Both the position numbers and the translations under genes were made by a program. A stretch of DNA of 64,000 nucleotides from Actinomyces gaoshouyii (lineage in GTDB: Bacteria; Actinomycetota; Actinomycetes; Actinomycetales; Actinomycetaceae), in contig NZ_MVIV01000004.1 in NCBI RefSeq assembly GCF_002072175.1, positions 124,001-188,000 of the forward strand. Direction: 5' to 3'. A model generated the notes under the pieces. It saw nothing but the letters and a program-made list of their open reading frames with translations, made no database searches and was not told where the DNA came from. This document shows, piece by piece, positions 47,047 through 50,093 of the stretch. Each line of letters starts with the position of its first letter. Positions within the stretch are counted from its first letter, which is position 1.

Positions 47047-48675
47047 TCAGTCGAGGTAGTCTCGCAGGACCTGGCTGCGCGAGGGATGGCGCAGCTTCGA
47101 CATGGTCTTGGACTCGATCTGCCGGATGCGCTCGCGGGTGACCCCGTAGACCTTGCCGATCTCGTCGAGGGTCTTGGGCTGGCCATCGGTCAGCCCGAAG
47201 CGCATGGACACCACGCCGGCCTCCCTCTCGGACAGGGTGTCGAGCACCGCGTGCAACTGCTCCTGCAGAAGGGTGAAGCTCACCGCATCGGCCGGAACCA
47301 CGGCCTCGGAGTCCTCGATGAGGTCGCCGAACTCGCTGTCCCCGTCCTCGCCCAGCGGCGTGTGCAGGCTGATGGGCTCGCGGCCGTACTTCTGGACCTC
47401 GACGACCTTCTCAGGGGTCATGTCCAGCTCGACGGCGAGCTCCTCCGGGGTGGGCTCGCGGCCCAGGTCCTGGAGCATCTGGCGCTGCACGCGGGCGAGC
47501 TTGTTGATGACCTCGACCATGTGGACCGGGATGCGGATCGTGCGGGCCTGATCCGCCATAGCACGGGTGATGGCCTGGCGGATCCACCACGTGGCATAGG
47601 TGGAGAACTTGTAGCCCTTGGTGTAATCGAACTTCTCCACGGCTCGGATGAGGCCGAGGTTGCCCTCCTGGATGAGGTCCAGGAAGAGCATGCCACGGCC
47701 GGTATAGCGCTTGGCCAGCGAGACCACGAGGCGCAGGTTGGCCTCGAGGAGGTGGTTCTTGGCGCGCTGACCGTCCTGGGCCACCCAGTGCAGCTCGCGG
47801 CGGTACTTCGCGGGGAAGTCGTTGCCCTCGGTGGCCAGCAGGTGCTCGGCGTACAGGCCGGCCTCGATGCGCTTGGCGAGCTCCACCTCCTGCAGGGCGT
47901 TGAGGAGGGCGACCTTGCCGATCTGCTTGAGGTAGTCCTTGACCGGGTCCGCCGTGGCGCCAGCGGTGACCACCTTCTGGGCGGGCTCATCGGCGTCGTC
48001 GGAGTCCGAGACGGTGAAGGAGCCGTCCTTGTCGCGCTCCTTGACGCGCTTGCCGGCCTTCTTGGCGGCGGCGCGCTCGGCCTCCTCCCGGCGCATCCTC
48101 TCCAGCTCCCCGGTGAGGGCGGCGATCGAGGGCTCCATCTTGATGCCCTTGATAACCCAGCCGCGGAAGATGTAGCCGTTCTCGGCCAGGAACTCGCGGG
48201 CCACCAGGGGCGCGGAGTCGCCGATGATGAAGCGCGGGACGGGACCGTGGCCGTAGGGGGCCAGGGTGATCGGCTCCTCGAGGGTGCCGTTGCCGTCGAT
48301 CTCCAGGCCCTCGACGATCGTGTGGGAGCGCACGTAGAGGGTGGCGCCGGGGGCGAGCTTGACGCCCTTGAGGGCGGCCGGCGTGTTGAAGGGGTGCTTC
48401 TTCGTGCCGTCCCCGTTCTCCTCCAGGTTCACGTCGAGGTAGTAGTCGCGCAGCTCCGGGGCCGGGCCATCGTCCTCCTGGGCGCCATCGGCGCCCAGGG
48501 AGCCCTCGTCATCCTCGTCGGAGTCCCCGTCCAAGTCGTCGCCGAGGTCCGCCTCCTGCTCATCGGAGTCATCGGCGTCGTCGACGTCCGGATCGAGGTC
48601 GAAGTCGTCCTCGGGGACCTCATCGGCGTCGTCGATGTTCTGAGCACGCTTGCGCAGGGCAGTGGAGGAAGCCAC
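47047..48675 (-). CDS. sigA: primary RNA polymerase sigma factor (RpoD/SigA) with unusual N-terminal insert
   Basis: A 542-residue group 1 sigma factor. Residues 12-75 are highly acidic. Region 1.2 begins at [16 protein letters not shown] (about 243), region 2 has [57 protein letters not shown], and region 4 has [22 protein letters not shown] as the -35-binding helix-turn-helix. Between the acidic stretch and region 1.2, residues about 77-180 resemble a parallel beta-helix instead of region 1.1 (see that entry). The GTG at 48675 follows AAAGGTG and matches the actinobacterial start [11 protein letters not shown]. It should direct housekeeping transcription. Confidence 0.95.
48136..48447 (-). 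other. beta-helix-like domain inside the sigma factor
   Basis: Codons for residues about 77-180 of Sig[60 protein letters not shown] and [12 protein letters not shown] follow in the order typical of the N-terminal coils of secreted right-handed parallel beta-helix proteins (pectate-lyase-like). The segment is in frame, has no stop and has the same codon bias as its surroundings. The helix [19 protein letters not shown] then leads into region 1.2. Identification is by pattern reading, not by a search. Confidence 0.7.
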
Positions 48676-48789
48676 GGGGCACCTTTCACGTGGGGAGTCT
48701 GCTCGGCGGCGGGCCAGCCCCTCGACTCCCCTCATCTCCACGCGGGGAACCGGGCGCAGTCCACCACCATCGCAGCGGGCAACCCAGCG

Positions 48790-48795
48790 ATTGTA
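48790..48795 (-). promoter_or_regulatory. sigA -10 box
   Basis: TACAAT on the minus strand, about 115 bp before the GTG at 48675, implies a 5' leader of about 108 nt. The -35 is not obvious. Confidence 0.45.
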
Positions 48796-48929
48796 GCGTT
48801 TATTCCCGCTCTGCTCAGCATCGCCCCAGCGCAGCCGTGCTCGGCGGCCCAGGGGCGGGTGCTCCCGGGATCGGCCGATCGCCACAACCCCCTGCCGCTG
48901 CTCCCACGACCGCCACCGCCTTTTGCCAC

Positions 48930-48935
48930 TACCCT
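48930..48935 (+). promoter_or_regulatory. -10 box of polyprenyl synthase gene, leaderless type
   Basis: TACCCT ends exactly 6 nt before the ATG at 48942. Confidence 0.45.
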
Positions 48936-48941
48936 GGCGCC

Positions 48942-50093
48942 ATGACGCAGATCGACCGCACGATGAGCCTCGTGCGCCGGGCAGTGGACGAGCGCATCTC
49001 GCAGGCGATCGCCGAGCGGAGGGACGAGTGGTCCGATGCCGGGCCCGCTGCGGCCGAGCTCCTCGACGCCGCCGCGGATCTGCTGGGGGGTGGCAAACGG
49101 ATGCGGGCCGTGCTGGCCGCCATCGCCCTGTCCGCCACAGCCGATAGCGCGCGCCGCGAGGATGTCCTGTCCGGACGGGCCTGCGCCGGCCTGGGCGCCG
49201 CTCTGGAGCTCTACCAGGCCAGTGCCCTCATCCACGATGACGTCATCGACGGCGCGCTGACCCGCCGGGGCCTGCCCGCGGCCCACCGCCGCTTCGCCAC
49301 CGCCCACCGGGGCTCCCACTGGCTCGGCGATGCGGAGGCGCATGGCCGCAGCGCGGCGATCCTCCTGGGGGACCTGCTCCTGTCCGCCGCGGGCTCCGAG
49401 CTCGGGGCGGCCCTCGCCCAGTGCCCGCAGGGGACCCGGGCGGCGGGGCGGGCCGCCTTCGACGCCATGGCGGAGGAGGTGGCGCTCGGCCAGTACCTGG
49501 ACGTGCGGACGGAGTCCCTGCCCCTGCCCGATGAGGGCGCGGATCACGCCGCCGCCGGCCGGGCGATGGAGGAGGCCGCCCTGGCCGTGGTCCGCCGCAA
49601 GTCCGCCCGCTACTCCGTCATGCACCCCCTGCTCATCGGCGCACTCCTGGGGGGACTGCCGCCCCACGGCGAGGGGGCCCGCCGCCTCGCGGAGCTGGGC
49701 GAGGCCACCGGGATCGCCTTCCAACTGCGCGACGACGAGCTCGGCGTCTTCGGAGACCCCGCCCGTACGGGCAAGCCCGCCGGGGACGACCTGCGCGAGG
49801 GCAAGCGGACGGTGCTGCTGGCGCTGGCCTGGCAGCGCTGCGACGCCGGGGGCAGGGCGATCCTGCGCCGCGTCCTGGCCAACACCCGGGCGGATCCGGC
49901 GGAGATCGCCGCGGCTGCGGCGATTATCGAGGAATGCGGGGCCAGGGCCGCGCACGAGGAGAGGATCGACGAGCATGCCGAGCGGGCGCGCCGGGCCCTC
50001 GAAGCGCTCATCACCGCGGAGGCGGGGCTCTCCAGGAGCGCCACTGCCGACCTGGCCTCCGTCATCTCGCTGCTGACCGACCGCAGCGCCTGA
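48942..50093 (+). CDS. polyprenyl diphosphate synthase (IspA/GrcC type)
   Basis: A 383-residue trans-prenyltransferase. GGGKRMR at 49-55 binds the diphosphate of IPP. The first Asp-rich motif is HDDVID (D99, D100, D103), and the second region is [12 protein letters not shown] (261-272), the form usual in actinobacterial enzymes. It condenses allylic diphosphates with isopentenyl diphosphate to make quinone side chains or carotenoid/lipid precursors; product length is not predictable. It is divergent from sigA. Confidence 0.88.

What the first reader, a model, noticed from the sequence alone, without database searches (positions are those of the whole stretch)
48136..48447. Beta-helix-like domain inserted in the primary sigma factor
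Seen: residues about 77-180 of SigA, between the acidic N-terminus and region 1.2, read in order like the first coils of a right-handed parallel beta-helix protein (YYLDVN...NGDGT...[46 protein letters not shown]). Known: primary sigma factors usually have region 1.1 or an acidic/basic stretch here, and such coils belong to secreted pectate-lyase-like proteins. Inference: a domain capture that replaced region 1.1 and may alter autoinhibition of DNA binding, core assembly or sensing. I know of no described sigma factor with this domain.
Basis: partly seen in the sequence, partly recalled or inferred. Interest (0 to 1): 0.9.

Follow-up and report, generated by a model that had tools for sequence, protein, structure and literature searches.

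The report
Glycosidase module inside housekeeping sigma factor
The housekeeping transcription-start protein (SigA) of the bacterial genus Actinomyces carries a small piece that otherwise occurs in sugar-cutting enzymes; it was apparently inserted once in the ancestor of the genus and has been kept since, which was not expected of such a conserved protein.

Summary
SigA residues 74-180 (window 48136-48456, minus strand) hold a ~105-residue module homologous to the N-terminal part of right-handed beta-helix proteins (profile against profile E 9e-24). Its nearest relatives are not pectate lyases but stand-alone modules of GH29-type alpha-L-fucosidases of the same bacterial family; in a tree the SigA copies nest among these (moderate support). 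All 49 genus genomes listed have it (named records: Actinomyces); none of 55 SigA proteins from 34 of the 35 other Actinomycetaceae genera does: one gain. It was inserted between the acidic tract and the conserved linker to region 1.2 and did not replace the acidic, 1.1-like tract. It is under purifying selection (dN/dS 0.24; tail 0.56). Its SigA-specific invariant residues are enriched in K/R, and the charge order of the N-terminus is reversed relative to sister genera. Best mechanism (inferred): a folded docking element that took over the role of the lysine-rich tail and positions the acidic tract. No structure could be computed (tool off). SigA N-termini elsewhere in the family carry other modules (Ig-like, Rho_N, phage-connector-like), which also feeds the rival reading of a tolerated spacer.

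The parts
47047..48675 (-). sigA, primary sigma factor, 542 aa, GTG start
   Evidence: NCBIfam PRK05901.1-3 E 7.5e-237; Pfam regions 1.2, 2, 3, 4; the start pattern V[AP][ST]ST was found upstream of the module in 27 of 28 named loci, not in L054
48457..48675 (-). N-terminal acidic tail, aa 1-73 (aa 1-76: 32 D/E, 4 K/R); fast-evolving
   Evidence: mean column conservation 0.60, dN/dS 0.56
48028..48135 (-). K/R-rich connector aa 181-216 ([29 protein letters not shown]...); helix inferred from sequence only
47947..48027 (-). conserved linker aa 217-243 ([27 protein letters not shown]), similar in sister genera, C-side border of the insertion
   Evidence: dN/dS 0.08
47848..47949 (-). sigma region 1.2, aa 243-276
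   Evidence: Pfam PF00140
47086..47751 (-). sigma regions 2, 3 and 4, aa 309-530
   Evidence: Pfam PF04542, PF04539, PF04545

Best explanation
Shown at sequence level: a ~105-residue module homologous to stand-alone modules of alpha-L-fucosidases (themselves homologous to the N-terminal part of right-handed beta-helix enzymes) sits in the primary sigma factor of genus Actinomyces, between the acidic tract and the linker to region 1.2, best explained by one insertion in the ancestor of the genus, and is kept by purifying selection. Inferred: it folds as a compact mini beta-helix (cap helix, about two coils, closing helix and strand) and works as a folded docking element of sigma region 1. Its SigA-specific invariant residues are enriched in K/R and could bind a polyanion: promoter DNA, RNA, or the protein's own acidic tract. 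With the K/R-rich connector it takes over the role of the lysine-rich tail of sister genera and anchors or positions the acidic tract, which would act as the 1.1-like DNA mimic that occupies and then leaves the RNA polymerase channel during open-complex formation. Likelihood by step: homology and capture 0.97; descent from a fucosidase-type module rather than a long beta-helix 0.8; folded domain in SigA 0.9; polyanion- or RNAP-docking role as described about 0.4.
For: Homology. Fucosidase context: in 9 of 9 proteins with Pfam Alpha_L_fucos among the 14 relatives scanned, the module lies beyond the catalytic domain; in 5 of 9 an F5/8C domain begins 121-134 residues after the module start, which bounds its size. 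Tree: SigA + fucosidase modules against the other 15 rows 100/98; SigA with 4 fucosidase modules 80/88. Distribution: 49 of 49 genus genomes listed; 0 of 55 sister SigA. One gain, Actinomyces clade 98/80. Constraint: dN/dS 0.24 in the module, 0.56 in the tail. Basic set: 38 invariant positions not shared with most fucosidase modules hold 9 K/R and 3 D/E; 50 variable positions 2 K/R and 11 D/E; Fisher p 0.005, or 0.019 when only aa 77-174 are counted (6:2 against 2:10). Charge order: basic before acidic in 37 of 37 sister SigA with a parsable start (of 53 split), acidic before basic in 28 of 28 Actinomyces; K/R medians 30 and 27. Precedent: in M. tuberculosis SigA the acidic disordered residues 132-179 are needed for initiation and are likened to sigma 1.1 (PMC10011835: abstract, section 9 and passages).
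Against: No structure and no binding data. The net charge of the window module is negative (-4 over 112 aa), so 'basic face' depends on invariant positions whose surface exposure is unknown; positions and sequences are not independent, and some 'SigA-specific' positions lie at the ends where most fucosidase slices are gapped, so the Fisher p is only indicative. Removing parts of the N-terminus of M. tuberculosis SigA did not change promoter-DNA affinity of free sigma, and region 1.1 of Thermus aquaticus SigA is called dispensable in vitro (PMC4593229 passage). The module's dN/dS is well above that of the sigma core (0.01-0.06) and close to that of the non-conserved region (0.27). The nesting among fucosidase modules has moderate support, the tree is midpoint-rooted and warns of long branches.
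Confidence: 0.5

Rival explanations
1. Inert spacer: the module is a captured, tolerated folded insert in a permissive disordered tail. It only lengthens the tether and is retained because it must stay folded and soluble.
For: SigA N-termini in this family accept very different modules: Ig-like in 1 genome, Rho_N/HeH, phage-connector-like. The sigma core's dN/dS is several-fold to an order of magnitude lower.
Against: Present in all 49 genus genomes listed; 38 invariant positions beyond those shared with most fucosidase modules, enriched in K/R; dN/dS 0.24 against 0.56 in the tail.
Confidence: 0.2
2. Docking site for a genus-specific protein partner, for example another RNAP subunit or a regulator, rather than nucleic acid.
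For: Strong conservation of SigA-specific residues. Actinomyces beta' (rpoC) ends in a tail (RADFSDDFRTGF..EDYQF-like) in 8 of 8 genomes that the 10 sister genomes lack in this form.
Against: The rpoC tail is a correlation in one clade, and the beta' C-terminus is not near sigma region 1 by my general knowledge of RNAP; rpoB shows no genus-wide indel above one residue by the criterion used.
Confidence: 0.2
3. Ligand or carbohydrate sensor: the module still binds a sugar or nucleotide-sugar and couples it to housekeeping transcription.
For: Relatives sit in glycosidases and match lacto-N-biosidases and alginate lyases of the PDB.
Against: Only the N-terminal part of such folds is present; 26 of the 38 SigA-specific invariants occur in at most 1 of 9 fucosidase modules; the shared positions are mostly Gly, Pro, Leu, Tyr, Thr and other uncharged residues; I know of no ligand for the fucosidase module.
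Confidence: 0.1
4. Not a beta-helix-type module; chance resemblance of a low-complexity tail.
For: No Pfam, NCBIfam or PHROGs family reported in the stretch alone.
Against: E 9e-24 profile-profile; 58 of 58 SigA sequences (overlapping sets) against 0 of 115 sister, reversed and shuffled sequences.
Confidence: 0.01

Closest known systems
Stand-alone module of alpha-L-fucosidases (Pfam Alpha_L_fucos; GH29 is the recalled family name) of Actinomycetaceae, without a Pfam name; e.g. L125 762-862, L127 540-619
   Same: Collinear over about 100 residues including a closing '..gW' strand; 24 of the 62 SigA-invariant positions are shared with at least 5 of 9; tree neighbour
   Different: Multidomain, presumably secreted enzyme; lacks most of the 38 SigA-specific invariant residues; no connector to a sigma core
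Right-handed beta-helix enzymes: lacto-N-biosidase 6kqs and 7v6m (GH136, recalled), alginate lyase 7dmk (PL6)
   Same: N-terminal sequence signature; PDB hits of the SigA profile and of the relatives' profile (7v6m 3e-16, 6kqs 1.1e-14)
   Different: By general knowledge those have many coils and a catalytic cleft; SigA has room for about two coils before region 1.2
Group 1 sigma-70 factors of Actinobacteria (HrdB, mycobacterial SigA)
   Same: Regions 1.2-4, acidic N-terminal tract
   Different: Their N-terminal part is reported as disordered ('disordered region 1.1' of HrdB, PMC10936776 passages; Mtb, PMC10011835 abstract and section 9); the module was not found in SigA outside the genus in the genomes searched here
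E. coli sigma70 region 1.1
   Same: Acidic element before region 1.2, described as a DNA mimic in the channel (PMC4598750 passages)
   Different: One of the helical structured domains of sigma (same passages); here an acidic tract plus a separate beta-type module
Human AsnRS N-terminal UNE-N domain (4zya)
   Same: Weak sequence match to the first half (E 0.066 with the SigA profile): a possible second case of such a cap on a cytoplasmic nucleic-acid enzyme; 77 aa, function unknown per PMC7424529 passages
   Different: Match not significant; a lead only

Membership tests
Primary (Group 1) sigma-70 factor | Regions 1.2, 2, 3, 4 present, SigA/RpoD-type match | tested here: met
   one match per genome at E<=1e-60 in the 37 genus genomes
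Primary (Group 1) sigma-70 factor | Essential for growth | not tested
   no data for this organism
Right-handed beta-helix N-terminal module | Significant profile match to proteins of solved beta-helix fold | tested here: met
   (fold of the PDB entries recalled)
Right-handed beta-helix N-terminal module | Three-dimensional parallel coils | not testable with these tools
   structure prediction switched off
Full right-handed beta-helix enzyme (PL or GH136 type) | Many consecutive coils and a catalytic site | tested here: not met
   profile match ends near aa 180; region 1.2 starts at aa 243
Fucosidase-associated module | Collinear match and tree placement among these modules | tested here: met
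   (100/98 for SigA with fucosidase modules; nesting only 80/88)
Sigma region 1.1 (E. coli type) | Match to a sigma-70 region 1.1 family at this place | tested here: not met
   Pfam lists no region 1.1 family for SigA at E<=5
Sigma region 1.1 (E. coli type) | Acidic element that inhibits free sigma and occupies the channel | not testable with these tools
   acidic tract present; function untested

The most novel reading that the evidence does not exclude
A housekeeping sigma factor domesticated a module of a fucosidase and turned it into a new, genus-wide regulatory domain of transcription initiation (a polyanion- or ligand-gated 'lid' on the acidic 1.1-like tract). More widely, the SigA N-terminus of Actinomycetaceae is a recurrent landing site where surface-protein and phage modules are recruited into the core transcription machinery.
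Probability: 0.3. Interest if true: 0.88.

Novelty: new variant of a known kind. Interest (0 to 1): 0.74.

Why it matters
Primary sigma factors are highly conserved, and what their N-terminal region does in Actinobacteria is open, in part because it is disordered in the solved complexes described in the papers seen. A genus whose region 1 contains a conserved, probably folded module is a natural case in which that region may become visible in the holoenzyme and can be tested. It also documents how a module of glycosidases can enter the core transcription machinery.

Tried and rejected
A scan of viral contigs with the wide alignment A2 failed because it had no conserved stretch and was not repeated. 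The shuffled control with the A1 profile was flawed: only the module was shuffled, the helix residues that A1 also covers were left in order, and these copies scored E down to 4.9e-9. I therefore count only the A4-profile control of that call. The idea of an overlapping gene or frameshift was dropped: the SigA matches listed show no stop inside, with L044 the one named record whose frame lacks the sigma core motif. Replacement of region 1.1 was rejected on order and on A. vulturis. A correlated RNAP insertion was looked for in 8 Actinomyces and 10 sister genomes: rpoB none above one residue; rpoC only small indels and a C-terminal tail. No sigma-70 promoter-like or terminator-like site was found in 48600-49000. 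'Actinomyces + sigma factor + beta-helix' gave 0 papers; 'sigma factor + N-terminal domain + parallel beta-helix + RNA polymerase' gave 1 phage paper, seen only in the listing. PMC11119718 (modular sigma factors of cyanobacteria) was seen in passages and did not mention a beta-helix. The library holds open-licence papers only, so absence there is weak.

Full report
WHAT IS THERE. The gene is sigA on the minus strand, GTG 48675 to stop 47047, 542 aa. Pfam finds regions 1.2, 2, 3 and 4 at aa 243-530 and NCBIfam an RNA polymerase sigma factor (E 7.5e-237, match from aa 197); before region 1.2 Pfam shows only a sub-threshold match at aa 176-212. The start is plausible: an AAAGGTG stretch precedes the GTG, and the same start pattern was found upstream of the module in 27 of 28 named loci. 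The order is acidic tail (aa 1-73), module (74-180), K/R-rich probable helix (181-216), conserved linker with SDSD (217-243), region 1.2.

IS THE RESEMBLANCE REAL. The 130-residue stretch alone has 7dmk, 6kqs and 7v6m as its top PDB chains; the 13-row SigA profile A1 gives 6kqs and 7v6m at 2.4e-4 and 7dmk at 1.9e-3. In the family's genomes A1 also finds large open frames at E down to 1.5e-14; where both positions are listed they lie elsewhere than SigA. A4, a profile of 12 of the 24 relatives read, with no SigA in it, finds all 30 SigA of the first set and all 28 named ones, and none of 55 sister SigA, 30 reversed and 30 shuffled sequences. Profile against profile: E 9.1e-24. A4 matches 7v6m at 3e-16 and 6kqs at 1.1e-14. 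That lacto-N-biosidases of this kind (GH136) and PL6 lyases are right-handed beta-helices is recalled. A weak match to the human AsnRS UNE-N domain (E 0.066) is only a lead.

WHAT IT IS CLOSEST TO. 24 non-sigma relatives were read (10 from the class sample, 14 from the family). 14 of the 24 were scanned with Pfam: nine have an alpha-L-fucosidase domain (GH29 is the recalled name), and of the other five, four show Pfam's right-handed beta helix further on (L130 and L132 above, L089 and L134 below the curated cut-off) and L133 shows none. Domain content suggests secretion; signal peptides were not tested. In the nine fucosidases the module lies beyond the catalytic domain; in five of the nine an F5/8C domain begins 121-134 residues after its start, which bounds its size. 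SigA aligns with these over about 100 residues, to a closing 'gW' strand. In a tree of 38 rows (14 of 29 SigA, 9 fucosidase modules, 15 others, of which only the five named were scanned with Pfam) SigA plus fucosidase modules is split from the rest with 100/98, and SigA groups with four fucosidase modules at 80/88; the root is the midpoint and the program warns of long branches. One genus genome, G174, holds such a fucosidase besides its SigA (L127).

WHO HAS IT. All 49 genomes of the window's genus that one search lists match at E below 1e-74; the genomes without a match, only some of which are shown (123 are not), begin with other genera. In 37 of these 49 the match was also seen as full-length SigA. 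The named scan returned 28 loci, all titled Actinomyces; 27 of 28 frames contain the sigma core motif, the exception being L044 (A. ruminis), whose frame stops early. None of 55 SigA proteins from 34 of the 35 other genera has it (genus g34 was not fetched; L112 and L123 may be cut at the contig or locus end). In 394 genomes of the class and 396 of the phylum, matches besides the window's genome were 10 and 2 (one shared); none of the 10 class frames holds sigma core motifs, and the one new phylum hit (E 0.008, open frame 916 aa) was not read. On a SigA tree without the N-terminus (79 rows: 27 Actinomyces of 29, 52 sisters of 55) the module needs one change, with the genus one clade at 98/80. 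A. vulturis branches first and has 11 K/R before its module, including KTAAKK, against 1-5 in 26 others (the start of L052 was misparsed). So the module was inserted between acidic tract and linker, and the lysine-rich tail shrank afterwards.

HOW IT EVOLVES. On 26 of 29 sequences (L044, L052, L054 skipped), dN/dS is 0.56 for the tail, 0.24 for the module, 0.40 for the K/R connector, 0.08 for the linker, 0.27 for the non-conserved region and 0.01-0.06 for regions 1.2-4. So the module is constrained, but about as much as the non-conserved region. Of 112 positions (aa 74-185), 62 are invariant in 29 SigA: 24 shared with at least 5 of 9 fucosidase modules (0 K/R, 1 D/E) and 38 not (9 K/R, 3 D/E, 1 H), while the 50 variable ones have 2 K/R and 11 D/E; Fisher p 0.005, and 0.019 when the ends, where most fucosidase slices are gapped, are left out. 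This is indicative only, since positions and sequences are related. The net charge of the window module is still -4. In sister SigA the basic part precedes the acidic part in 37 of 37 with a parsable start (53 split), in Actinomyces it follows in 28 of 28, with similar K/R totals.

MECHANISM. Region 1.1 of sigma70 keeps free sigma from DNA and then acts as an acidic DNA mimic in the channel (review PMC4598750, passages). In M. tuberculosis SigA the disordered acidic residues 132-179 are needed for transcription in vitro and for complementation, while truncations did not change promoter affinity of free sigma (PMC10011835, abstract, section 9 and passages). In the Streptomyces structure region 1.1 of HrdB is disordered (PMC10936776, passages). 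Against a strict need, region 1.1 of Thermus aquaticus SigA is called dispensable in vitro (PMC4593229, passage). I infer that the Actinomyces acidic tract plays the 1.1 role and that the module is a folded docking or anchoring element which, with its connector, supplies the basic surface that the lysine-rich tail supplies elsewhere. This is not shown. A tolerated spacer and a partner-protein dock are about equally likely rivals; a ligand sensor is less likely.

A WIDER PATTERN. Other SigA N-termini of the family carry other modules. G012 has an Ig-like unit 52% identical (E 1.4e-19) to units of a separate frame in the same genome; among the 15 of 213 genomes with a match, only this one has it at SigA where the SigA position is known. 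The g26 SigA L117 has three Rho_N stretches by Pfam, and similar-looking repeats are visible in seven other g26 rows and one g24 row (by eye). Two g32 segments tested resemble the C-terminus of phage head-tail connectors (phrog_2322, E 7.6e-8 and 3.1e-6). This supports the N-terminus as a landing site and is also the main argument for the spacer rival.

VERDICT. Novelty: a new variant of a known protein; I found no description in the searches listed under Tried and rejected, which cover open-licence papers only.

Noticed in passing
L111 (G012, genus g12), SigA N-terminus; L168: SigA with an Ig-like module 52% identical (E 1.4e-19) to units of a separate 559-aa frame in the same genome: a second, independent capture.
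   Followed up: partly
L117 (G055) and L141-L145, L148, L150 (g26), L156 (g24): SigA N-termini with Rho_N/HeH-type repeats (Pfam Rho_N E 2.4e-17 in L117; the others by eye).
   Followed up: partly
L119, L140, L151, L153, L158, L159, L161, L164-L166 (genus g32): SigA N-termini with a short 'W.EYRV..TK.ELI'-like segment resembling the C-terminus of phage head-tail connector proteins (phrog_2322; 2 of these 10 tested).
   Followed up: partly
L179-L186 (rpoC of 8 Actinomyces genomes): The beta' subunit ends in an acidic/aromatic tail (RADFSDDFRTGF..EDYQF-like) in 8 of 8, not in this form in 10 of 10 sister genomes.
   Followed up: no
L125-L129, L131, L136-L138: An unnamed ~105-residue module stands beside F5/8C domains in alpha-L-fucosidases; Pfam reported no family there.
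   Followed up: partly
L044 (Actinomyces ruminis record): The sigA frame is 373 aa long and lacks the sigma core motif; draft-assembly error or real break not resolved.
   Followed up: no
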